Of a stretch of DNA of 64,000 nt, positions 10,746 through 26,469 are shown piece by piece. Position 1 is the first letter of the stretch. Each line of letters opens with the position of its first letter. The stretch lies in the NCBI RefSeq assembly GCF_009905725.1, contig NZ_JAAAKV010000004.1, positions 310,001 through 374,000 of the forward strand. The letters run 5' to 3'. Origin of the DNA: Emticicia sp. CRIBPO. GTDB lineage: Bacteria > Bacteroidota > Bacteroidia > Cytophagales > Spirosomataceae. The notes under the pieces are model-generated. The model searched no databases, was not told the DNA's origin, and was given only the letters and a program-made list of their open reading frames with translations. Position numbers and translations under genes: made by a program.

Positions 10746-11732
10746 TTAATTTTTAATAGCTGAAGCCCCTTTTCCTATAGTTCTTGACATAGTTTTCAAC
10801 CCTAGGAACATATAGTAAAAGCCAGTTTTTGGAGTTGCGGCTAATCCGAGACCTATTCCTAAAACTTTTGCTTCAAAACGTGAAATGGGATCTAGTCTTG
10901 GATCATAAGATAGAGAAATTTCTTGTGCAACAAAGGCCCAATCATCTTTAATAACTTTTGTATTAATCAAAAGAGAAGCCGCTCCTCTGGCTTCTTTACG
11001 ATCGTAGGCTAAGTCATGAATCATTCCAGGATACTCAATCGGATTAGTTGGTAAATAAGAATAATCATCTTTACCATTATATTTTTTAGGATTTGATGGG
11101 CCTGGATAAGTTTTCCAAAAGATGTTATGTCCAATTGTTCTTGGATCAAGTGCTTCTGGAGTTAAATCACCTTGAACTTCATGCCATGCATTATCAACAG
11201 ATTCTTTATCAAGATACCACTCAACTCCTCTTCGACTTGGATACCCGGTCTCTTTAATCTCCGAAATTAGCCTTCCTCCGTTACTAAGGGTTCCCAGGCC
11301 GGCTCCGGACATTTCTCCCTTTACAAAATCAGCCATTTGATTTGTTGAAGGATTATTGTTTAAAGCTTCATTTTCAAAGCTCATATAACTCATATAGCGT
11401 TTTATATCTTCTTTATCAGTCGTTGAATAACCGGTTGATGTAACTTCCCACAGTCCAAATGGGTCAATGTAACGAATAGGGTTATTTAGAACATATTGAT
11501 AAGGTGACTGAGGATAATTACCAGCAGTTGCCGGATCCACTTCCCACCAACTCCCCATACCTGCATCATACCATCTGGCACCGTAGTCATAGAAGTTCAG
11601 GCCGAATTCTTCGTTGAGCTCTTTACCATTATAAAGATAACGGAATTTCGGTAAAACCGGGTCTTTGTACCAGGCCCCGTTCATCACTTTTCCGAAAGGA
11701 TAGTAATGAGTTTCACTGATGACAGTAGTCAT
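10746..11732 (-). CDS. Displaced RHS tip with a phospholipase A2-like toxin domain
   Basis: A 328-aa protein. Residues 5-67 are nearly identical to the RHS-associated core of the full-length RHS protein (SETHYYPFGKVMNGAWYKDP to GSWWEVDP). The core end NNPIRYIDPFG follows (83-93). The C-terminal domain (about 100-328) carries YPGPSNP (209-215), PTNPIEYPGMIHDLAYD (228-244) and a hydrophobic tail. The order 'Y-x-GP-x-NP ... NP ... HD-x2-Y-D' resembles the calcium loop and His-Asp pair (H239, D240) of phospholipase A2-like domains. It has its own ATG but no signal peptide, so it would be exported only after recombining onto the full-length RHS gene, or it acts as a stored cassette. The enzymatic call is motif-based. 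Confidence 0.65.
   Translation of the reverse strand: MTTVISETHYYPFGKVMNGAWYKDPVLPKFRYLYNGKELNEEFGLNFYDYGARWYDAGMGSWWEVDPATAGNYPQSPYQYVLNNPIRYIDPFGLWEVTSTGYSTTDKEDIKRYMSYMSFENEALNNNPSTNQMADFVKGEMSGAGLGTLSNGGRLISEIKETGYPSRRGVEWYLDKESVDNAWHEVQGDLTPEALDPRTIGHNIFWKTYPGPSNPKKYNGKDDYSYLPTNPIEYPGMIHDLAYDRKEARGAASLLINTKVIKDDWAFVAQEISLSYDPRLDPISRFEAKVLGIGLGLAATPKTGFYYMFLGLKTMSRTIGKGASAIKN
11532..11722 (-). repeat. RHS-core DNA repeat, copy 3
   Basis: About 191 bp nearly identical to 19867-20057 in the full RHS gene and to part of 13489-13700. It codes for the ETHYYPFGK...WWEVDP core segment. A few point differences and abrupt loss of similarity at both ends suggest displaced recombination homology. 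Confidence 0.85.
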
Positions 11733-11835
11733 TTTTTAATAAAATATTTAACTAAAGCTTTAAACCTGTTGATTTAAAATCGTCAATACAGTGAAAATTA
11801 TCTTAGTAGTTTCATTTCCTGGATTTGTACATCCA

Positions 11836-12033
11836 TTATCGATTTTCAACCCGCTTTCCCACTATATACAAAAGGATTAAAATTAGAACTAAAACTACAG
11901 CGACTTTAATAACAGAAGAATTCGTATCTTTGGGTACATTGTGTCCGCTGGCATGAAGGGCAAACCAGAAGAGAACGTCCAAAATTAGCAAAATAGATGT
12001 CAACCATTTTAAAACTATTATATTTATTTTCAT
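11836..12033 (-). CDS. Small two-helix membrane protein next to a decayed RHS tip
   Basis: A 65-aa protein with two hydrophobic helices (about 5-28 and 41-59) and a basic end (GKRVENR). Its ATG at 12033 follows the tail of a decayed RHS tip reading in another frame. Position and size fit an immunity protein that outlived its toxin. No family is recognised. Confidence 0.45.
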   Translation of the reverse strand: MKINIIVLKWLTSILLILDVLFWFALHASGHNVPKDTNSSVIKVAVVLVLILILLYIVGKRVENR

Positions 12034-12351
12034 CGTCTTGATTCGTTTTGATATGTCCTTGAAAACACTGCTTTACTAACAAATTCAGAACTTGTTCAAG
12101 TTGCCCTCCTGACATACCAGTAACATTTAACTTATCTCCATCTTTTAAGTTAACTGGGTTTCTTTGTAGCAAATCTGGCACAATAAGAGCAGACTTAGGA
12201 AGATTTGATGCGTCCTGAATAGAACTGTACATATCAGTAAGCAAAGTTTGTTTTACGCATGTCTATCGTCTCGATCTATCATATTAACTGGATTGTCATT
12301 ACTAAAGACCTATGGGCTGAAACTCAGAGTCTTCATCGCCAAAGGGTCAAT
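12034..12351 (-). pseudogene. Decayed RHS tip remnant
   Basis: From 12351 to 12253 the minus strand reads IDPLAMKTLSFSP, then a TAG stop, then VFSNDNPVNMIDRDDRHA and TAA. This is the RHS core end (compare DPLADQPQQLRFSPYVFSNNNPI in the neighbouring tip) with a nonsense change where Tyr is expected. A different frame then continues from 12244 (PDLLQRNPVNLKDGDKLNV...), consistent with a frameshifted toxin tail. It has no start codon or promoter of its own and lies just behind a terminator. Confidence 0.7.
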
Positions 12352-12362
12352 TTGTCAATAAG

Positions 12363-12384
12363 AAAGCCCCATCCTTGGGGCTTT
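12363..12384 (-). terminator. Terminator of the hydrophobic RHS tip/immunity pair
   Basis: Nine-bp stem AAAGCCCCA / TGGGGCTTT with a 4-nt loop, 7 nt past the stop of the membrane immunity gene. It separates this pair from the decayed remnant downstream. Confidence 0.85.
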
Positions 12385-12390
12385 TTGTTA

Positions 12391-12762
12391 CTATCTATTA
12401 AAAATTAGAATATATACAACTGCTGGAATTATAATCGTAGCCCAAAATACCCAGATCATTTTGTTCAAAATTTCGTCATTTTCATTATCATTTATAAATT
12501 CTTCTACTTGGTTTATTGTCCAGGTATATTTATTTAAAAAATAGAAAATCATAATAACCAAAAGAATGTAGAGCCACGTAAGAGAAGTTTCTAAGCCAAT
12601 ATTAAGGGCTATTCTTAAAAAATACAGTAATACATAAAACCATAAAAGTATTATTAAACTTACGGATATTTTTGAAAAATAGAAGTTGGATAGACTGGGT
12701 CTTATGTTACCGAATGCAAAATTGGCGTACAATTTACAAATCAAATAATTTATAGTTCTCAT
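12391..12762 (-). CDS. Integral membrane protein, candidate immunity to the overlapping RHS tip
   Basis: A 123-aa protein with three strong membrane helices (about 31-53, 61-78 and 101-121). Its start overlaps the stop of the RHS tip by 4 nt (ATGA type), which implies translational coupling. Integral-membrane immunity proteins are typical partners of pore-forming toxins such as channel colicins, so the pairing suggests the tip acts on membranes. No family is recognised. A strong terminator follows. Confidence 0.65.
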   Translation of the reverse strand: MRTINYLICKLYANFAFGNIRPSLSNFYFSKISVSLIILLWFYVLLYFLRIALNIGLETSLTWLYILLVIMIFYFLNKYTWTINQVEEFINDNENDEILNKMIWVFWATIIIPAVVYILIFNR

Positions 12763-13646
12763 CGGATTCTGATTTTAGAGGTATCAACTTGTTGTGATTC
12801 AATTACTTTATTAGATTGATATTGTTCAACCTTATTATCCACTGCTTTAAAAATAGCATCTTTTGCACCTGTTACGCTCAATAATCCGTCAGCAATACCA
12901 ATCGCTGCACCAGTTAAAGGATTTACTTTTAAGGCAGCTAAACCAATATCGACACCGGCTTTTAGCATATTTCCTGCCGTTGGGTTTTCAATGGCTTGTG
13001 CAGTAGAGATGATTGCTCCCGTTATTCCTAAGCCTTTTCCTATATCATCTAATACATTTATTACTGGGGCAGCAGCATCAAGTGCATTGCCAAGTTTTGA
13101 AGCCCCTCCAACAACACCTGTATTTAAGTTGTTGCTTAAATCAACAGCATTAATAAGATTATCTAGTGTACCTGATAAACTACTTCCTGATTTTCCCGTA
13201 ACAGTTACCTCACTCAACATGGTTGAACTTGTAGCAGTACCATTGGCATTTAAATTTACCTGTTCCCCTTGCCCATTCATGTATGTGCCAGACTTTCCTA
13301 TGTCAGTTGCACCATTTCCGTATTTGGCTGTTGCTTCGGCTTGGTTGTTTACAGAGAAGTCAAAGGTTACACTTCCGTTTTGCTGTTTTATCCAATCAAA
13401 TGGTAATCTACCGTCGGGGTCTGTAAATCGAATCGGATTGTTATTTGAAAATACATAAGGCGAGAACCTTAATTGCTGTGGTTGATCCGCCAACGGATCC
13501 ACTTCCCACCAACTCCCCATTCCTGCATCATACCATCTGGCACCGTAGTCATAAAAGTTCAGACCGAATTCTTCGTTGAGCTCTTTGCCATTATAAAGAT
13601 AACGGAATTTCGGCAAAACCGGGTCTTTGTACCAGGCCCCGTTCAT
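12759..13646 (-). CDS. Displaced RHS tip, Gly/Ala-rich and hydrophobic, candidate membrane-active toxin
   Basis: A 295-aa protein from the first in-frame ATG; in-frame RHS-core codons continue back to about 13700 without another start. Residues 1-51 are the shared core (MNGAWYKDPVLPKFRYLYNG to WWEVDP), followed by PLADQPQQLRFSPYVFSNN and FTDPDG. The unique part (about 80-295) is rich in Ser, Gly, Asn and Ala with long hydrophobic stretches (VGGASKLGNALDAAAPVINV, GADIGLAALKV-like) and no catalytic motif. It could be pore-forming or could be a pre-toxin segment. It is coupled to a membrane-protein gene by a 4-nt overlap. Confidence 0.6.
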   Translation of the reverse strand: MNGAWYKDPVLPKFRYLYNGKELNEEFGLNFYDYGARWYDAGMGSWWEVDPLADQPQQLRFSPYVFSNNNPIRFTDPDGRLPFDWIKQQNGSVTFDFSVNNQAEATAKYGNGATDIGKSGTYMNGQGEQVNLNANGTATSSTMLSEVTVTGKSGSSLSGTLDNLINAVDLSNNLNTGVVGGASKLGNALDAAAPVINVLDDIGKGLGITGAIISTAQAIENPTAGNMLKAGVDIGLAALKVNPLTGAAIGIADGLLSVTGAKDAIFKAVDNKVEQYQSNKVIESQQVDTSKIRIR

Positions 13647-13700
13647 GACTTTTCCGAACGGATAGTAGTGGGTTTCGCTGATGATCTCCGAGTTGTCAAT
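13489..13700 (-). repeat. RHS-core DNA repeat, copy 2
   Basis: A 212-bp segment nearly identical to 19862-20073 in the full-length RHS gene, coding for DNSEIISETHYYPFGK to WWEVDPLA. Similarity stops sharply after GTTGTCAAT at 13700, inside what would be the upstream RHS core, marking an old recombination or insertion junction. Confidence 0.9.
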
Positions 13701-13805
13701 ACAATCGCAGTTTCATTGGATATGTGTATTTTTTAATAATATAATATTAAAATGCTTATTGTATTCTCACAATTCATTGCATTTTTCAACAGGGTTGTCA
13801 TAAGA

Positions 13806-16424: not shown

Positions 16425-17150
16425 TTTTTTTGCTTTGTTAAATTTGGGCCTCCGTAAATTACTTTTTCTAACTTAAGTGTGCCTTTTGGGTATACAAATT
16501 CAAGATATTCTCTTCCGTTGGTTTCTAGGTGGGCGACTTGATATGAATTAAGTCTAAATACTACCACATCATCACCACGATTTGCATGAGTAGCTTGTCC
16601 ATTAAACAAATTTTGAAAAGCTTCAGAAGGAGCCATTGCTATGTTTGTTAAATAAACTTTGCCTTTATTGTTAGGTAATATTTTATGTGTAGCCATGATT
16701 CCTGCTAATCCAACTTGATCGGTGTAATGGTAAAAAGTATAACCATCGTCATTCGACTCTTTCCTTGGTGTATCTCCTTCAACTAAAGTGATTAAGGATA
16801 GTATTGACCCAGCTCTTAATGCAACACGACCTAAGCTTTCCAATATACTTTGCCATGACAGTCCTGTCGTTCATCCTATTGTTCCTGCAGTGCCTAGTAG
16901 CGGTACAGCTGAGGCAGATTTCTCTTTCGAGTTAGAAGCTTTTGACGATTGAGATTTTTGCTTTTCCTTTTCATCTTTTTTCTCTTTATCGCGATCTCTA
17001 TTAGCAAACTCTATCTGAGCAGTCTCATGTCGACCGATCATATCATCAAAGGAAGTCATTCCACCGAAAGCCAGACTCTCTAAACTATCGGGGTCAAGAA
17101 AGTGGGCTATTGTTTTCGTATGTAATACTGCTCGCTTGTCTGGGTAACTC
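16421..17150 (-). pseudogene. Broken RHS tip with ART-HYD1-like toxin domain
   Basis: The minus strand first shows the RHS core end in two frames (ITYENNSPLS, then FLDPDSLESLAFGGMTSFDD), implying a 1-nt frameshift near 17087. The second frame runs to GTAGTIG and meets a TGA at 16871-16873. The same frame continues without break as TTGLSWQSILESLGRVALRA to the end at 16421. The last part has YHYTDQVGLAGIMATHKI, KVYLTN and GDDVVVFRL, which resembles the His-Tyr-Asp pattern of ART-HYD1 ADP-ribosyltransferase toxins. A TTG at 16843 could still start a 140-aa domain. The family call is from memory of motifs. Confidence 0.65.
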
Positions 17151-17271
17151 TGGTAAGAGATCGAACAAAATCAAACTTAGAAAACTCCTTATTCGTTTTT
17201 TATTTTATTTTTAATCATATATTCAAATAGCATCTGAATTGTAAGTTCCTCATTAATTTTCCGTTGTTTTT

Positions 17272-17505
17272 TTAAGTTAAATAATGTTTCCAGGTCATAG
17301 TATTGAGTTCTGCTTCCTCCAGAAAGTACTTTTGAAAATCAAAATTTTTAAAAGTTACGCCAAATTTTTTTGATAAATGCTCCAACAAATCAACGGCACC
17401 TATACCATCATCTATTTCCCTAATGACATATTGTGGGGAAAAGTTAAAATCATAAGGATATTCTTTTTCTAGAAATGAAATGAGGTTTTCAAGTGTTAAT
17501 TCCAT
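17272..17505 (-). CDS. Small acidic protein, DUF1493-like, possible immunity protein
   Basis: A 77-aa acidic protein (MELTLENLISFLEKEYPYDF...). The pattern IDDGIGAVDLLEHLSKKFGV...FDFQKYFLEE resembles DUF1493, a small acyl-carrier-like fold. No toxin is immediately upstream; the nearest intact tip is 18002-18691, already followed by its own immunity-like gene. It is probably a second or orphan immunity gene. Confidence 0.5.
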   Translation of the reverse strand: MELTLENLISFLEKEYPYDFNFSPQYVIREIDDGIGAVDLLEHLSKKFGVTFKNFDFQKYFLEEAELNTMTWKHYLT

Positions 17506-19083: not shown

Positions 19084-22000
19084 TTATTTTGAGAAAAATA
19101 AATTACCAGTTTTTCTTTCAAAAATACTGAAAGCCCCATTGGACTGAATTTCAATTCGATGTCCTTTTGTTAAAGCAGTCACATTACCGTTGGGGTGATA
19201 AGTTACGTATTTGTCATCTAAAATTCCAAACATTCTATCATTTGCTCGAGCATGTACTCTCTCAATAGCATCGAGACTTTTATTGATTAATTTCAAAGCT
19301 TCTTTTGGATTTTTAGGGCTAGGAGCATTTTCTAAAGCATTTTTAAACAGAGACAATCTTTCTACACGAGAAAGTAAACTCTTAGCCGTAATTTTTAAGA
19401 ATTTTGCATATTCAATACCTCGAAAAAAGGAACCCCAAGGGAAAGTTTGCCATGGGTCATTCCATGAAGATTCCAGGCTTGCTGTGAGATAATCTGAGAA
19501 AGTTGAATTTGAGAAACCGTTTACCACAGTTCTTATTAAGGCCTGTAAAGAACGTTCGTCTCTTTGTAAATTGACTACATTTTCATGAATTAACAAAGAA
19601 CCTCTTGATCTCCAAACATTATTCCATAATTGGCTGTCGGTTCCTTCACCAGAATTGTTAGCACTCAGCTGAAAAGTTGGAACATCTTTCCATTCTATTT
19701 GATAAACATCATTTCTTCCGTCATTAGTATTGAGTAAAGTATGGCCAGAGGGGTCTACAAAACGTGTAGAAATGGATTCGCTTTGTTGACCATTTGGGTC
19801 GATATTTGAAACTGGATTATTTTCTCCATAATTGAAAGGGCTTGATTTATAGTACTCGTCGGCCAACGGATCCACTTCCCACCAGCTCCCCATTCCTGCA
19901 TCATACCATCTGGCACCGTAGTCATAGAAGTTCAGACCGAATTCTTCGTTGAGCTCTTTGCCATTATAAAGATAACGGAATTTCGGCAAAACCGGGTCTT
20001 TGTACCAGGCCCCGTTCATGACTTTTCCGAACGGATAGTAGTGGGTCTCGCTGATGATCTCCGAGTTGTCAATGCTGCCGCTGCCGTTTTTGTCTGAAAA
20101 TACCAGCCGGGTATTGCCCAGGTGGTCTTTCAGCGTGTATTCATACCTGAATGTCCCGGCATTGTTTACCGCCCGGCCTTCTTCATTATAAACGGCTTCC
20201 ACCACATTATTATTGAGTTCTATTTCACCCAGGTAGTCCTGGGTCAGCGTTACGGTTCCGGCTGTTTTTACGGTTTTACGTAGCTTATTGCCTGTGGCGT
20301 CATAAAGTAATTCAATCGTGTTATTGCCTCCGAAATCGAATTTAGAGGGCAGATTCAGAAAATTATGAGGGGCGTCCATGTTCACCCTGGCCGGGTCAAT
20401 ACTCGTTGTGCCTGAGCTCCCCGTGGTTTTATTGGTACCCGAGGATATGGTCAGCGTCTGATTGTCTATCGTGGTGTTGGTAAAGGCCCCGCCGCTGCTT
20501 ACCATGCCTTTGCGGTTAATGCTCTGGATGTTGCCCCTGGCATCAAAACTCCGGGTTTCGGTAAAATAGTCATTGTTGCTGATCGTGCCACCGGACGTGT
20601 AATCAGAATACCGGGAATTGGTGAGCCTGTCAAGGTGGTCATAGGTGAAACCATAAGCCTGTGTGCTGCGTCCTTTGACCTGCCAGAGCATCTGCCCGAT
20701 GTTGCCGCTTTGCTGCACTGTGCCGTTGAGCCCGGCCGTGAGACTGTTGTATTGCAGCACTTCTCTGAAAAGATCATCAGTAGTGGCCCCGAAGCTTGGC
20801 ACAGCTGTACTGCTCAGCATATTGCTCACAGCGTAGGTGCTGCTGCTCAGGTCGGAAGTACCGTTGATGTCAGACAGCAGACCGTTAGACAGGTAATTGT
20901 AATCTACCTGCTGAAGACCGTTCGTTCCAGGACCCAATTTTTTCCAGGCCAGCTGGTCTTTGGCAGTATAAGCCAGCCTGCTGACAGTGTTGGCTGAGCC
21001 TCCGTTAACAGACTGGGTGGTTTGGGTGAGTCTGCCCCAGGCATCAAACTGGCGTGCATTGACAATCGTCGTGGTGCCTGCACTGTGCGTACTGCTCCGG
21101 GTCTCGCTCAGGATATTGTCACCGAAATCATAGGTGTAACTTACGGATTCTGCCGTGGTGCTACCCAGTGCGGTATGGTTATTTCCTGTCTGGTTGCTTA
21201 CCCTGCCGTAGCTGTCGTAATTGAAAGTACTTTGTAAAACACCGTTGGCAGCCCCGGGAGTCACTACAGGATCAGCGACATTCAAAACCATCGTTTTGCT
21301 CGTTTTGAGTTTATCGGTCTCTATGCCTGAGGTAGCGGTGCTGTAAATGTTTTCAATGATCTTGTTGCTGAGTGTAATGGCATCCCCACTTCCGCCGGCA
21401 TATACTCCTTTTTCAGTTAATCTGCCGTAATCATCATATTTACTGGCCATCCACCTGCCGTTGGTTTGCAGAAAAGCATCCTGAAAACGTACGGGAAGGT
21501 CTCGGCTGTTGTATTCATACAGTTCGGCTGCCTTGCCCGGTATTTTTTTCTGAGAAATGAGGTCATTGTTCAGGTAAGTGTAGCCGAAGGTAAGGTCAGC
21601 ATCACTCCATGAAGCTCCAGGCGGAATGACCTTCACGAGCCTGTCTTTATCGTCATAAACATAGTAGGTATCAGACCTGCTACCGGTTGATTCGGCCGCA
21701 TCAGTTCTTCTGCTCAGCAGCATTCTTCCTTTTTTATCTGTAAACTGGAAGGTCTTGTTGCCATTGCCGTCTGTAACGGTGCTTTTGCTGAGTTCACCTG
21801 CTGCAAACGACGAAGTGCTTCCAGTGCTGAAATTGTAATTCAGTACACCATCTCCTGTTAGGTTGGAGCTGAACCCGTTGATGGTCGCAAACCACGAAGG
21901 CGGCGTAACTTTCCAGGTCCTGTTAAGGGAGTTGGCTTCGTATTCTGTCAGGGTATATGGGGTGGCTCCCGGGTTTTGATAGCTCCCGTCGGAAACTCCG

Positions 22001-25000
22001 CTGGCAAATGGTTCAAAAGTCTTGCTTACGCGTCCCTGAACATCATAACTAACCGCCATGACCTGGTCGAGTGCGTTGGCCTTGCCTTTGGCAACGGTTT
22101 CGATCACCCTGCCTAGCCCGTCAAAATATTGGAAGGATTCCTGCGTGCCCAACCCGCTGCCAGCCACTGTTGTGTAGGTAGTAGTTGATTTTATTTTGCC
22201 ATAGCTGGTAATGATTCCTGAAACATTGACCGTAGGGTAGGTATAGGCATAATTGATTTTTACATTGGAGCTTCTGGCCTTAGACTCCTGGAGTCTCATA
22301 AGCGGGTCATAAAGAAAATCAGAGAATTGCCCGTCAGGCCCTGTGATTTTACTGACCAGGGGAGTGTTGGTGAAATACTCGTATTTCCAGAGAAAGTCTT
22401 TGAACTTCCGTTGTTTGATCAGGCCTGTACTGTACCATTCGTAGGTTTCCGGCAACCAGCCTGTTTTGGTGAACTGACGTGGAAGACCCGCCCTTCCTGT
22501 GACGGAGGAGGTGCCGTGATAACTGTCAATGCTGCCTTTGATTACCCAGCCGGCTTCGTAGTTTTTAAACTGGTAGGGTCTTAAAAACTGACCTGCAGAT
22601 GGTCCGGAAGTGCTTACGAAATTGCCTGAAGCATTATCAAAAGAAGCAAATTCTATTTTGGAGCCTTTTTGCTGTATACCGGCTACTTTGATCCTGGTCT
22701 CAAGAGGAATGATGATATTCAGGCGGTTGAATTCTGCCAGTTGGCCGGAAGGGAGACCTGATACCTCCGCCGGATACACATATTCAGTTTCAGTGACTTT
22801 CCCATCTGAATTGGTCAGGCTTTCCTTGGTCACCATCAGGTGGTTGGTGCCGTTGTATTCTTTGGAAAGTGTTGTGATCTGACCATCTCTATAGGATTCA
22901 ATGGTGGAATATCTGAAAGGAGTTGTTTTGATGGTATATAATTTCCAGAAAGTAATAGGTGTGCCATAGCCACCTGTTTTGTAAGTATTAAATTTAATGA
23001 ATTTTCCCTGGACATTCTGGTAAACCTCTCCTCTGAGAGAATAGTTGTCATAAGAATATATATCTTGTCCGGTTACATCCCTGTGGGATTTTGACATCAG
23101 CTCTCCGGACTGAATTCTGGGTTGTGGTGGTACAAGAGGAATACCTTTAAATGGTTCGGGAGATTCATTATAATATCTGTAATAATTGTAATATCCGGTT
23201 GCCGATGCGTTGAAATATTCCCTGACGGCTGAATATCCGATATGATATCCTTCAAAGGAAGAGAGCGGAACCAGTGAGTTTTCAAAGAAAAAATGGTTGA
23301 TATAAAGAAAACCTCCAGCATTACAATCCTCTGCAATCAGGTTGCACATTCCTATGCAACCTTTATGGACATAACCATAGATAGGCATATTATAAAGTAT
23401 TGCACTTGATCTGGAAGGAGTCCAGTTGTCTTGATAAGTATAACTTCTTACCTGGTCGTTGGCTGAACTTATGCCGTCAAAATTGGTAATTTTCTTGATA
23501 CGTAGTCCACCGGCTAAGAAATTACCAGTAAGTGTGGTAGAAGTGAGTTTGTTGAGTACAAACTTTGAGGCAATGTTGCCGCCTTTCATTTCAAACCTGA
23601 GAGCCACACCTACAGGCAGACTGGGGAACAGGGTCACCAGTTTTCCTTCTGCAGTGGTAATATTGTCATCTGTACAACCAGTGTTGGTGCTGGCCGAGCC
23701 TACCTGCGAGCCATCTGACACTTTGAAGACCCTGATTTCAATAAACGGTGTAGGGCTGCAGCAGGATGGACTGTACTGCGGACCCCGCTTTTTACTCCAG
23801 GTATAATAGAGGTTATTAAGATCCGTAGAAGAGCTGATAGTCAGGTTAAAAGTGGCGGTTGGGGTGCCATCTATCATACATTGCCCTCCCGGCCAGTATC
23901 TGCTGAGACTGTCTACCGGACCATAATTCAAAGAATCCCTTGTTCCCCAATAAGTGTTGGCTTCATATTCAAAGGATGTTGAACCTCCGGTAGGATAAGC
24001 AATTTTTTTGAGCGTACCGAGTTTCATGGAAGCTTCATTCGGATGGCGGTTAGAATTTCCCTCCACCTCATTTACCGGGGTTGAGAAAAACATGTAACTT
24101 ACCCTTGTAGTGGGAATATTGAGGGCAGTGTTAGTCGGATTGGTGGTAACTCCGTTGTAAAAACCCCAGTGGTCGATACCCGAAGAAAAACGGTTGGGCA
24201 AAAAGCCTGTGTTGCCAGACAATTCGTAATACTCAAAGGTATATGGATTGGCGGAAACGGTATTGTCACAGGATTTTTCCTGAACGCTTAATAGTTTCAG
24301 GGTTTTGTCTGAATACATCCCCGATTTCTGAGCTGAAGCATCATCATAATAAGTTTGGGCCAGGTCAAAGACTTTACAAAATGAACCTGACTGCACCTGG
24401 ATTTTGTCGAGCTCTTTAGACTCATAACCTGAAACATCATTTAATATATCACTCCTGTTTGCACCGGCAGTGAATGATACTGTAGCGGTTGAGCTTACAA
24501 TAGAAGAAATCCTCCAGCCCATAATATCCACTACATGTTGGAGGTATCCTCCCGAGGTGGTGGAAGATGGGTAACCTGTTGTGGTAAGTCCCGCTGCAGC
24601 ATAATTGGAACGATAGTTATAACGATATCTTTCTTCTGCATAATTCAGAGTAATGTTGAAAAGGTCATCAGGCGAAGAGATTTTCCTTAGATACCAGCCA
24701 TTGGCATACCAGAACCCCACATCGTCTGTTTCCATTACTTCTATTCCATGATTATTGGCACTGTTATCAATGTTACCGAAGAGGTATTTGGTCCCGTCTG
24801 GTGTAATGATAGTAAACTTACTTAATCTGTAGGCATTGGAACAGTTAGAAGGGGCAGAAGCTTCATAGGTAATCCTGACATCCTGCTGCGGAATCAGAAT
24901 AACCTTGCCATTGACAACACCATCATTTGTCATATCAGCTTCAATAAAGAATTTTCCGTTATATCCTCCTACAGAAAACGAGAAAATATCAGGCTCAGGG

Positions 25001-25446
25001 TCTTTGGTCCCATTTACAAAATCCTGATTGGTGTGCGGGCCAGTGATGCAGGAATCAGTAGTGGCCGCAATTTCACTGCCAATAGAAAAATATCCGTTAC
25101 AACTTTCATCTGCTTTTCCCTGCACCGTCCTGCTGATCATTCCTCCTGCCTGCAAACTCCAGCCTGCTCCGACCCAGCTGGCGGTTTCAGCTACTTTTTT
25201 GCCACTGGAATGGTAAGAAAGTGCAACCGGAAGACTTACAGAGCCTTCTTTTACAGTGTAAATAGGGATACCTATGTTAGGTACGCCGGTGTAATAACTC
25301 ACCGGGATATCTCCGAACTTGCCCAGACTGGCAGCATTGGGAGAGGGCATGACCACATCTTTGATCTGGCTGTTGACCGGTTGGGCCTGAACTAATCCTG
25401 CACAACATGTGAGGACTAACATGAGGATGGTAAATCTTTTATGCAT
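19084..25446 (-). CDS. Full-length secreted RHS/YD-repeat polymorphic toxin
   Basis: A 2120-aa protein with a Sec signal (1-21, LVQAQ). The N-terminal half (about 25-900; ASLGKFGDIPVSYYTGVPNI, SYHSSGKKVAETASWVGAGW) is the Bacteroidota RHS front part. DUF6443-like and YD repeats follow (NYDSYGRVSNQT, YDDYGRLTEKG, YDHLDRLTNS), then the RHS core (DHLGNTRLVFSD, YYPFGKVMNG, FYDYGARWYDAGMGSWWEVDP) near 1790-1860. The variable tip starts after about 1885 and ends with RMFGILDDKYVTYHPNGNV and IEIQSNGAFSIFERKTG; I do not know this toxin. The shell would encapsulate the tip. There is no PAAR domain, T6SS gene or T9SS sorting domain, so the export route past the outer membrane is unknown. It is preceded 18 nt upstream by the M43-like gene. 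Confidence 0.9.
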   Translation of the reverse strand: MHKRFTILMLVLTCCAGLVQAQPVNSQIKDVVMPSPNAASLGKFGDIPVSYYTGVPNIGIPIYTVKEGSVSLPVALSYHSSGKKVAETASWVGAGWSLQAGGMISRTVQGKADESCNGYFSIGSEIAATTDSCITGPHTNQDFVNGTKDPEPDIFSFSVGGYNGKFFIEADMTNDGVVNGKVILIPQQDVRITYEASAPSNCSNAYRLSKFTIITPDGTKYLFGNIDNSANNHGIEVMETDDVGFWYANGWYLRKISSPDDLFNITLNYAEERYRYNYRSNYAAAGLTTTGYPSSTTSGGYLQHVVDIMGWRISSIVSSTATVSFTAGANRSDILNDVSGYESKELDKIQVQSGSFCKVFDLAQTYYDDASAQKSGMYSDKTLKLLSVQEKSCDNTVSANPYTFEYYELSGNTGFLPNRFSSGIDHWGFYNGVTTNPTNTALNIPTTRVSYMFFSTPVNEVEGNSNRHPNEASMKLGTLKKIAYPTGGSTSFEYEANTYWGTRDSLNYGPVDSLSRYWPGGQCMIDGTPTATFNLTISSSTDLNNLYYTWSKKRGPQYSPSCCSPTPFIEIRVFKVSDGSQVGSASTNTGCTDDNITTAEGKLVTLFPSLPVGVALRFEMKGGNIASKFVLNKLTSTTLTGNFLAGGLRIKKITNFDGISSANDQVRSYTYQDNWTPSRSSAILYNMPIYGYVHKGCIGMCNLIAEDCNAGGFLYINHFFFENSLVPLSSFEGYHIGYSAVREYFNASATGYYNYYRYYNESPEPFKGIPLVPPQPRIQSGELMSKSHRDVTGQDIYSYDNYSLRGEVYQNVQGKFIKFNTYKTGGYGTPITFWKLYTIKTTPFRYSTIESYRDGQITTLSKEYNGTNHLMVTKESLTNSDGKVTETEYVYPAEVSGLPSGQLAEFNRLNIIIPLETRIKVAGIQQKGSKIEFASFDNASGNFVSTSGPSAGQFLRPYQFKNYEAGWVIKGSIDSYHGTSSVTGRAGLPRQFTKTGWLPETYEWYSTGLIKQRKFKDFLWKYEYFTNTPLVSKITGPDGQFSDFLYDPLMRLQESKARSSNVKINYAYTYPTVNVSGIITSYGKIKSTTTYTTVAGSGLGTQESFQYFDGLGRVIETVAKGKANALDQVMAVSYDVQGRVSKTFEPFASGVSDGSYQNPGATPYTLTEYEANSLNRTWKVTPPSWFATINGFSSNLTGDGVLNYNFSTGSTSSFAAGELSKSTVTDGNGNKTFQFTDKKGRMLLSRRTDAAESTGSRSDTYYVYDDKDRLVKVIPPGASWSDADLTFGYTYLNNDLISQKKIPGKAAELYEYNSRDLPVRFQDAFLQTNGRWMASKYDDYGRLTEKGVYAGGSGDAITLSNKIIENIYSTATSGIETDKLKTSKTMVLNVADPVVTPGAANGVLQSTFNYDSYGRVSNQTGNNHTALGSTTAESVSYTYDFGDNILSETRSSTHSAGTTTIVNARQFDAWGRLTQTTQSVNGGSANTVSRLAYTAKDQLAWKKLGPGTNGLQQVDYNYLSNGLLSDINGTSDLSSSTYAVSNMLSSTAVPSFGATTDDLFREVLQYNSLTAGLNGTVQQSGNIGQMLWQVKGRSTQAYGFTYDHLDRLTNSRYSDYTSGGTISNNDYFTETRSFDARGNIQSINRKGMVSSGGAFTNTTIDNQTLTISSGTNKTTGSSGTTSIDPARVNMDAPHNFLNLPSKFDFGGNNTIELLYDATGNKLRKTVKTAGTVTLTQDYLGEIELNNNVVEAVYNEEGRAVNNAGTFRYEYTLKDHLGNTRLVFSDKNGSGSIDNSEIISETHYYPFGKVMNGAWYKDPVLPKFRYLYNGKELNEEFGLNFYDYGARWYDAGMGSWWEVDPLADEYYKSSPFNYGENNPVSNIDPNGQQSESISTRFVDPSGHTLLNTNDGRNDVYQIEWKDVPTFQLSANNSGEGTDSQLWNNVWRSRGSLLIHENVVNLQRDERSLQALIRTVVNGFSNSTFSDYLTASLESSWNDPWQTFPWGSFFRGIEYAKFLKITAKSLLSRVERLSLFKNALENAPSPKNPKEALKLINKSLDAIERVHARANDRMFGILDDKYVTYHPNGNVTALTKGHRIEIQSNGAFSIFERKTGNLFFSK
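19862..20073 (-). repeat. RHS-core DNA repeat, copy 1 (in the full-length gene)
   Basis: Reference copy of the 212-bp core segment repeated at 13489-13700 and, as about 191 bp, at 11532-11722. It lies directly before the variable tip, the position at which tip exchange by homologous recombination would occur. Confidence 0.9.
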
Positions 25447-25464
25447 GGTTTGGTTGTATTTATA

Positions 25465-26469
25465 TTATTTCCGGATTTGATTTTTGATGTCATTGTTGAG
25501 TTTACCCCTCGGACCTTCCTGAGAGAGAACAGCTCGCATACGGGTAATCTGACCTTTGGTAAACAGCGAAAGCTGATGGTCCCTGGTGTTGTCCATAAAG
25601 TTCATATACATGGCTACCGGCGATCCCAGACAAAAACAGATCTGCCTGTGATTCTTTTCAGTTAAAACCACATCGCTCGGATAATCATGTAACGGGGTAT
25701 CAAATACTTTGTCATCTTCACAGGGTGTGGTTTCATTCCATAATTCATAAAGGCCGAGATAAGTACCCATGAGATGAACCAGGGTTTTTCCCTGGCTGTA
25801 AGGAGATTTATCCTCCCGGGTTTCCGCCCACAGGTAATCAGGGTCTATAATGATGCCGTCAAGATGCTTCGGAGAACCTGGCATATAAGCAAAACCGGCA
25901 TTGGAATCTCCCAGTTCGGCTATCCATATGTTGATGAACTTTTCCGGTGTTTCAGGAGCAGAACCACCTGCTTTGCTGTCCTGGATTTCATTTTTGATTC
26001 CCCATACATCCCTATCCGTGTTGACGATTTTGATACCTGAACTGACAAGTTCAGAACTCCCTAAATAGAATTGTATTCCCGGATTTCCTCCGGATTCAAG
26101 ATAGCGTTTTACTTCTTCATTCGGCACGTCTTTATCTTCCGGAGTAAACACTCCAAAAGCCTGATTAAGAATCTCTATCTGCTTGGCTATTTGTTCTTTC
26201 CCGGGAACAGAGCCGTCTTTTTTTGCAAGAACGTGAAAGACCAGCGGGATATTAATGACGTTATTTTCTACAGCATTTTTATAAGAATATTCCGTGATGG
26301 TACTTTCTATATTCTCTTGTTCTTTGACGAAATCAGGAAATTCTTTTTTTAAGTTTTCCAGAACTACCTGGGTGATGTATTTCCTGCTTTGCCCAAAAAT
26401 ATCAGAAAGACCGGAGGCCATCAGGAAAAGTAGAAGTACTGTTTTAATGAAAAAAGTGCGTCTGTTCAT
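25465..26469 (-). CDS. M43-type metalloprotease homologue with destroyed zinc site
   Basis: A 334-aa secreted protein (signal 1-26, IFGQ) with the pappalysin-type M43 layout: NIPLVFHVLAKKDG, IQFYLGS, INIWIAELGDSNAGFAYMPG, GIIIDPDYL, CEDDKVFDTP, and a Met-turn-like MNFMD (M292) followed by FTKGQITRMRAVL. Active members have HExxHxxGxxH; here the segment is HLMGTYLGLYE (232-242), keeping H232 and G239 but replacing the catalytic Glu by Leu, the second His by Thr and the third by Glu. It is therefore almost certainly a pseudo-protease. It ends 18 nt before the RHS start on the same strand, so it is likely an operon partner and possibly a binding or chaperone-like protein for the RHS shell. Confidence 0.8.
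   Translation of the reverse strand: MNRRTFFIKTVLLLFLMASGLSDIFGQSRKYITQVVLENLKKEFPDFVKEQENIESTITEYSYKNAVENNVINIPLVFHVLAKKDGSVPGKEQIAKQIEILNQAFGVFTPEDKDVPNEEVKRYLESGGNPGIQFYLGSSELVSSGIKIVNTDRDVWGIKNEIQDSKAGGSAPETPEKFINIWIAELGDSNAGFAYMPGSPKHLDGIIIDPDYLWAETREDKSPYSQGKTLVHLMGTYLGLYELWNETTPCEDDKVFDTPLHDYPSDVVLTEKNHRQICFCLGSPVAMYMNFMDNTRDHQLSLFTKGQITRMRAVLSQEGPRGKLNNDIKNQIRK

What the first reader, a model, noticed from the sequence alone, without database searches (positions are those of the whole stretch)
25465..26469. Pseudo-protease of the M43 family directly upstream of the RHS toxin gene
The zinc motif HExxHxxGxxH has become HLMGTYLGLYE: catalytic Glu and two zinc histidines are gone while the surrounding fold motifs and the Met-turn are kept. 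The reading frame is intact and the gene ends 18 nt before the RHS start. A maintained dead protease in this position suggests a new role, such as binding, folding, surface anchoring or export of the RHS shell.
Basis: partly seen in the sequence, partly recalled or inferred. Interest (0 to 1): 0.8.

Follow-up and report, generated by a model that had tools for sequence, protein, structure and literature searches.

The report
Dead protease partner of RHS toxins
Next to a large bacterial toxin gene sits a protease-like gene whose cutting site was lost once, long ago, yet is tightly preserved and usually paired with this same kind of toxin, so it has probably become a dedicated helper protein of the toxin.

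Summary
Observation confirmed; the gene lies on the minus strand. P0001 (334 aa) has the M43 fold: Pfam E 1.4e-11; pLDDT 90.6; proulilysin Z 34.8. Its site is HLMGTYLGLYE, 18 nt before RHS. It is not decaying. Of 13 dead copies found in Bacteroidota, 11 have RHS directly downstream, against 0 of 69 active M43 loci. Twelve dead sequences form one clade, motif columns left out (SH-aLRT 99.9). Two zinc histidines, the general base, cysteine switch and tyrosine switch are lost together. The rebuilt site is strongly conserved, also outside the scan's search pattern; dN/dS is 0.16 and 0.21 in two pairs. Partner RHS proteins share a shell but not toxin tips, so the pseudo-protease goes with the shell. 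Four copies carry a T9SS sorting domain; the window copy does not. Binding is inferred, not shown.

The parts
25465..26469 (-). Pseudo-M43 (pappalysin fold) protein P0001, 334 aa, N-terminus that looks like a signal peptide (by eye, no predictor run), pro-segment-like region before the metzincin-like domain (about residues 70-327)
25738..25788 (-). Former zinc-site segment KTLVHLMGTYLGLYELW (residues 228-244)
   Evidence: coordinates derived from residue numbers
25588..25602 (-). Met-turn region NFMDN (residues 290-294), with the Tyr-switch position changed to Asn
   Evidence: coordinates derived from residue numbers
26377..26379 (-). Residue Tyr31, aligned with the cysteine-switch Cys of active M43 proteins
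   Evidence: coordinates derived
19084..25446 (-). RHS polymorphic toxin gene, 2120 aa, signal-peptide-like N-terminus (by eye), DUF6443, RHS core at 1803-1887, unidentified variable tip after about 1890
25447..25464 (-). 18-nt gap between the pseudo-M43 stop and the RHS start (operon-like)

Best explanation
The gene belongs to a distinct, conserved pseudo-protease subfamily of M43. An ancestral secreted pappalysin-type zymogen lost its chemistry once (supported by the tree) and lost the matching latency parts with it: the zinc-capping Cys became a bulky hydrophobic residue and the Tyr switch was lost (shown by alignment). A pro-segment-like region remains, so the protein is probably a permanently sealed zymogen (inferred). 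It lies in an operon-like unit with one class of RHS toxin and, like it, starts with a signal-like stretch (by eye). Its rebuilt active-site face most likely binds the constant RHS shell outside the cytoplasm and acts as a dedicated cap, folding partner or adaptor that holds the toxin until it is displayed or released (inferred). In lineages where it carries a T9SS sorting domain it may bring the RHS protein, whose own C-terminus is taken up by the toxin tip, across the outer membrane or to the surface (inferred, weaker).
For: Linkage: RHS immediately downstream, same strand, in 11 of 13 dead copies; gaps -20 to 61 nt in the 10 measured; 0 of 69 active M43 loci hold RHS, 66 of which have at least 1.5 kb downstream. 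Single origin: 12 dead against 60 active, SH-aLRT 99.9, motif columns left out, quick method. Constraint on the dead site: L233 and M234 in 12 of 12, and, outside the scan's search pattern, Y237, L238, W244 and H261 in 12 of 12. Residues 235-244, outside the pattern, rank 4 of 207 windows in the 12 copies and 1 of 207 in the 4 copies found without any pattern. Coordinated loss: Cys-switch column C in 58 of 60 active, Y4 F6 I2 in dead; Tyr-switch column Y35 F20 of 60 active, N8 S2 A2 in dead; S1' Asp kept 12 of 12 (roles of these residues from passages of PMC6949598). Selection: dN/dS 0.16 and 0.21. Goes with the shell: the 9 RHS with a dead partner fall on one side of a branch against 26 others (SH-aLRT 94); distances correlate (Mantel r 0.61, 99 of 20,000 permutations as high); shell conserved, tip not; tips include Tae4 and Ntox8. 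T9SS tail above the Pfam cut-off in 4 of 13; SprA over cut-off in 11 of 11 genomes.
Against: No binding data. The window copy and 7 others have no T9SS tail, so T9SS carriage cannot be general as stated; of these 8, two (L046, L048) have a T9SS-tailed gene directly upstream, L048's only just over the Pfam cut-off and below the TIGR04183 one. Two dead copies lack an adjacent RHS: L056, whose genome gave no RHS match, and L047, where a full RHS lies about 48 kb away without an M43 in its 1.5-kb flank and only RHS remnants lie nearby. Most dead copies were found through the peptide pattern GKTL[VT]HLM, so the invariance of residues 227-234 is partly built in. The same region is also the best conserved in the active set. 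The RHS-clade support of 94 is below the starred level, and both trees carry long-branch warnings. Co-phylogeny also follows from shared descent. The kelch proteins upstream of other RHS classes carry no T9SS tail.
Confidence: 0.6

Rival explanations
1. T9SS carrier: the pseudo-protease is itself a T9SS cargo and drags the RHS toxin, which has no sorting domain, across the outer membrane and anchors it on the surface.
For: T9SS type A tail above the Pfam cut-off in L047, L051, L055 and L057, and a below-cut-off tail in the second copy of G918. T9SS-tailed genes directly upstream in L046 and L048. SprA in 11 of 11 genomes. A TANFOR toxin is encoded directly downstream of a T9SS substrate, and such substrates are enriched near TANFOR genes (PMC7073777, section 9 read).
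Against: No tail in 8 of 13 copies, the window's included.
Confidence: 0.3
2. Immunity protein: it neutralises the RHS toxin tip in the producer.
For: Adjacent and co-oriented in 11 of 13 copies.
Against: It is conserved while the tips are unrelated (9-20% identity in the last 120 residues of window against L045/L046; Tae4 and Ntox8 tips elsewhere). It lies upstream, while small ORFs that could be immunity genes lie downstream in L048, L051 and L215.
Confidence: 0.04
3. A decaying protease or a chance neighbour.
For: Two copies lack an adjacent RHS.
Against: dN/dS 0.16 and 0.21; strong conservation of the dead site, also outside the scan pattern; one clade; linkage p 5.6e-12.
Confidence: 0.02
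4. Retuned metal protein: invariant His232 and the dead-family-specific His261 form a new metal or ligand site with a chemistry of its own.
For: H232 and H261 in 12 of 12; H261 in only 1 of 60 active proteins.
Against: The position of the third former ligand varies (E, P, D, S) and the general base is always Leu.
Confidence: 0.1
5. Prey-binding adhesin: the pseudo-protease recognises the target cell and only brings the RHS near it.
For: Signal-like N-terminus; T9SS tail in some; a T9SS-tailed ricin-B lectin gene beside L046.
Against: The shared clade and the correlated distances point to contact with the RHS shell, though not decisively.
Confidence: 0.15

Closest known systems
Pappalysins (M43): ulilysin, mirolysin
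   Same: Fold including the pro-segment region (proulilysin Z 34.8 over 285 residues; promirolysin Z 32.0; sequence profile matches), Met-turn, first His, the C250 and C280 cysteines, S1' Asp
   Different: Two zinc ligands, general base, cysteine switch and tyrosine switch lost; linked to RHS
TANFOR polymorphic toxins of Bacteroidetes (PMC7073777; found passages and section 9 read)
   Same: Large signal-peptide-bearing polymorphic toxin, in the described case encoded directly downstream of a T9SS-tailed protein
   Different: There the upstream gene has SprB repeats and a CTD; here it is a pseudo-protease, and the toxin is an RHS protein
NCBIfam NF052323, T9SS-dependent M6-like inactivated metalloprotease
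   Same: An annotated inactive, T9SS-linked metalloprotease-like family
   Different: M6-like; only the sorting tail of two tailed members (L051, L055) matched it, far below its cut-off
Tc toxin TcB/TcC and T6SS Rhs effectors (seen only as listings; details recalled)
   Same: RHS cocoon with a variable C-terminal tip that needs a delivery partner
   Different: Partners there are, as recalled, TcA, a fused beta-propeller, or VgrG/PAAR/Eag proteins; none known to me is a pseudo-protease

Membership tests
M43 fold family (Pfam PF05572) | Profile match over the curated cut-off | tested here: met
   45 bits against 23; the 12 other dead copies scanned also exceed the cut-off
M43 fold family (Pfam PF05572) | Pappalysin three-dimensional fold | tested here: met
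   pLDDT 90.6, pTM 0.89; proulilysin Z 34.8, rmsd 2.1, 285 aligned
Active M43 metallopeptidase | HExxHxxGxxH zinc motif and Glu general base | tested here: not met
   HLMGTYLGLYE in the window; E to L and both later His lost in 12 of 12 aligned dead copies
Active M43 metallopeptidase | Cysteine switch in the pro-segment | tested here: not met
   Tyr31; 0 of 12 dead and 58 of 60 active have Cys
Active M43 metallopeptidase | Met-turn | tested here: met
   N290, M292 and D293 in 12 of 12
Active M43 metallopeptidase | Proteolytic activity | not testable with these tools
   Needs a bench assay
RHS polymorphic toxin (partner gene) | RHS-associated core followed by a variable tip | tested here: met
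   TIGR03696 at 1803-1887; tips differ
T9SS type A substrate (window protein) | PF18962/TIGR04183 C-terminal domain | tested here: not met
   No match at E 0.1; met in L047, L051, L055 and L057
TANFOR toxin class | TANFOR domain in the toxin | tested here: inconclusive
   No TANFOR-named match in Pfam or NCBIfam for P0002; whether the libraries hold that model was not checked

The most novel reading that the evidence does not exclude
A protease zymogen was turned into a sealed, trans-acting carrier or cap for an RHS toxin. Its former active-site cleft became the docking face for the RHS shell, and in T9SS-tailed lineages it supplies in trans the outer-membrane export signal that the toxin cannot carry because its own C-terminus is the warhead.
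Probability: 0.3. Interest if true: 0.88.

Novelty: new variant of a known kind. Interest (0 to 1): 0.72.

Why it matters
As far as I know (recalled, not searched exhaustively), how RHS toxins without T6SS parts leave Bacteroidota cells is not settled. A conserved, catalytically dead partner gives a defined second component to test. That four RHS genes of other classes in the same bacterial family have a kelch propeller directly upstream suggests a wider rule: RHS classes may each have their own secreted partner. It is also a clean case of a protease active site rebuilt under strong constraint.

Tried and rejected
Decay or accident was rejected. Immunity was rejected because tips vary while the partner stays the same. 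Membership among active peptidases was rejected.

Led nowhere: the AlphaFold model of the RHS N-terminus (first 560 aa, 9 sequences) had pLDDT 56.3, pTM 0.61 and was not used. A Bacteroidota-type promoter pattern (recalled) gave one hit in the window, not upstream of this gene, and fewer than chance (3.13 expected). Plasmids gave 8 weak records whose sites were not read. Viral contigs gave 4 relatives; 3 printed an HExxH-active motif and L225 printed none. Pfam gave nothing at E 0.01 for 9 ORFs between 10.2 and 16.8 kb nor for the C-terminal 230 aa of the RHS. In a 395-genome sample of the phylum (at most 4 candidates scored per genome, E up to 1e-55) no new dead copy was seen; 18 of the 19 new loci read have an active motif, L202 matched neither regex. 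The dead-motif DNA pattern was found in 6 of 348 genomes of the family of G922, all six already known.

Limits. The genome-contig scan worked through two peptide patterns and kept the best 80 of 460 relatives, so weaker or motif-less dead copies may be missed; 8 of the 12 aligned dead copies match only the GKTL[VT]HLM pattern, which makes residues 227-234 invariant partly by construction. Of 72 RHS N-terminal matches in 222 genomes, 4 have the dead partner; 26 of the other 68 were read and none has an M43 in its 1.5-kb flanks (one chance-level hit, L161 at E 0.94; in L168 the flank is one long frame and shows no upstream gene). The NG86 ratios rest on two pairs; three other pairs were saturated. 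Some RHS starts used for the gaps are my choice (L048 and L055 GTG, L064 a later ATG). L101 was skipped by the script because of a stop or an N test in its stretch, and 8 of the 79 proposed loci, all active, were left out of A3 by choice. L215, the 13th copy, is not in the tree. Papers: PMC7073777 found passages and section 9; PMC6949598 and PMC3482391 found passages only; all others search listings only. No pairing of an M43 pseudo-protease with RHS turned up in the listings of searches, which cover only open PMC text.

Full report
OBSERVATION. The gene at 25465-26469 is on the minus strand and encodes a 334-aa protein with a signal-like N-terminus, judged by eye. It matches Pfam M43 above cut-off. 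The zinc motif is HLMGTYLGLYE and the Met-turn is NFMD. It stops 18 nt before the 2120-aa RHS gene on the same strand. The RHS protein has the RHS-associated core at 1803-1887. In the window's own genome the only other M43 match is an active-type protein with HEVGHWLGLIHTWG.

RELATIVES. In 222 genomes of the bacterial family, searched with the whole protein, three relatives at 52, 44 and 37% identity carry the same dead motif and have RHS downstream; the other fetched hits are HExxH-active without RHS in their 1.5-kb flanks. Contig lengths show that the first two are Dyadobacter jejuensis and Dyadobacter sp. CY345 and the third a Spirosomataceae MAG, so the window's family is Spirosomataceae. 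A scan of 84,980 species genomes through two peptide patterns kept 80 loci: 11 dead and 69 active. A second copy in the genome of L051 was found by the dead-motif DNA pattern. Counting the window, there are 13 dead copies: Spirosomataceae 4 (window, L045, L046, L064); Saprospiraceae or genomes drawn as the same family as a Saprospiraceae MAG, 8 (L048, L050, L051, L055, L056, L057, L071, L215); and an unplaced Bacteroidota MAG (L047). The system is rare: 4 of 222 genomes in one family (the match list was cut, its top is complete) and 6 of 348 in the other.

LINKAGE. RHS follows directly on the same strand in 11 of 13: window, L045, L046, L048, L050, L051, L055, L057 (RHS start at the contig end), L064, L071 and L215. 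Measured gaps in ten are 18, 61, 45, -20, 4, 28, 21, 14, 7 and 34 nt. The two exceptions are L047 (RHS remnants 3-5 kb upstream; a full RHS, 39% identical, about 48 kb away on the same contig with no M43 in its 1.5-kb flank) and L056 (heparinase-like neighbour, no RHS match in its genome). Among the 69 active loci none holds RHS when searched with 35 RHS proteins; 66 of them have at least 1.5 kb downstream and 58 at least 3 kb. Fisher p is 5.6e-12, or 5.2e-11 with short flanks dropped.

WHAT CHANGED IN THE PROTEIN. Column by column, 12 dead against 60 active: general base E 60/60 becomes L 12/12; second His 60/60 becomes N, Q, T or S; third His 60/60 becomes E, P, D or S; first His kept 72/72. 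New dead-specific constants appear: K228 (R in 59 of 60 active), M234, Y237 (W in 50 of 60), H261 (Q in 57 of 60). The cysteine-switch position is C in 58 of 60 active and Y, F or I in the dead. The tyrosine-switch position is Y or F in 55 of 60 active and N, S or A in the dead. The S1' Asp (D297) and the C250 and C280 cysteines are kept in all. The roles of these residues in mirolysin come from passages of PMC6949598. The structural alignment to promirolysin begins at residue 29 against residue 21 of the chain, which places Tyr31 at Cys23 if contiguous and agrees with the sequence alignment. The picture is a zymogen whose zinc site and matching latch were both replaced while the pro-segment region stayed; that it is sealed is inference.

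CONSTRAINT AND HISTORY. Residues 228-244 are the best conserved 17-residue window of the dead family, tied with 227-243 (0.853 against 0.51 for the domain; 0.83 for the same window in the active set). Part of this is built in, because 8 of the 12 aligned copies match only the GKTL[VT]HLM search pattern. Outside that pattern, residues 235-244 still rank 4 of 207 windows in the 12 copies, and 1 of 207 in the four copies that were found without any pattern (window, L045, L046, L064), which also all carry GKTL[VT]HLM. Two close pairs give dN/dS of 0.16 and 0.21; three more distant pairs were saturated. With the motif columns left out, the dead sequences are one clade at SH-aLRT 99.9, with long-branch warnings for L064, L056 and L048: most simply one loss, then long maintenance.

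PARTNER. The nine RHS proteins with a dead partner that entered the tree separate from 26 other Spirosomataceae RHS (SH-aLRT 94, not starred; long branches L051 and others). In the family search they stand apart at 45-100% identity against at most 39% for the other matches that span 350 or more of the 500 query residues; some short matches have higher identity. Pairwise distances of the two proteins correlate (Mantel r 0.61, 99 of 20,000 permutations as high). Along the RHS, window against Dyadobacter identity is 39-75% per 200 residues up to residue 1800, and 9-20% in the last 120 residues. Tips recognised elsewhere are Tae4 (L051) and Ntox8 (L048). The pseudo-protease therefore belongs with the constant shell, which speaks against an immunity role.

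EXPORT. T9SS type A sorting domains end the pseudo-protease in L047, L051, L055 and L057, and a below-cut-off tail ends the second copy of G918 (read as L213). The window copy has none. In L046 and L048 a T9SS-tailed gene lies directly upstream (L048's tail is borderline). SprA is over cut-off in 11 of 11 host genomes and in 0 of 14 controls. For TANFOR toxins of Bacteroidetes an analogous order, T9SS substrate then toxin, and an enrichment of T9SS substrates nearby led its authors to propose T9SS export (PMC7073777 section 9).

CONCLUSION. Shown: fold (predicted with high confidence), dead site, linkage, constraint, link to one RHS shell class. Supported: single origin. Inferred: binding to the RHS shell, cap or adaptor function, and, in tailed lineages, carriage through T9SS. 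I file the protein as an M43-fold pseudoenzyme, not as an M43 peptidase, and rate it a new variant of a known kind (pseudo-protease partner; RHS accessory).

Noticed in passing
L159, L162, L166, L172, directly upstream of RHS genes of other classes: Kelch beta-propeller proteins (439-491 aa; L159's frame is open at the locus end) lie directly upstream of these RHS genes; perhaps the partner of another RHS class, recalling the propeller of TcB.
   Followed up: partly
window 10746-13706, minus strand: Two short ORFs repeat the RHS core at 80-82% identity to residues 1790-1888 of the main RHS with no Pfam domain; they look like orphan tip cassettes.
   Followed up: partly
window 19084-19776, minus strand: The C-terminal tip of the RHS protein has no Pfam match: an unidentified candidate toxin domain.
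   Followed up: partly
L046, RHS tip within 17000-17311: The RHS tip of Dyadobacter CY345 holds HEFGHMLGLDD, a zincin-like motif, so there an RHS with a dead M43 partner seems to carry a protease-like tip.
   Followed up: no
L056:771-1961: A dead M43 copy with no RHS match in its genome assembly, next to a heparinase II/III-like gene: either a lost partner or an independent role.
   Followed up: partly
G915 contig C335 (L047, L216, L218, L220): A full RHS lies about 48 kb from the dead M43 with no M43 in its flank, while RHS remnants lie near the M43, suggesting a rearrangement.
   Followed up: partly
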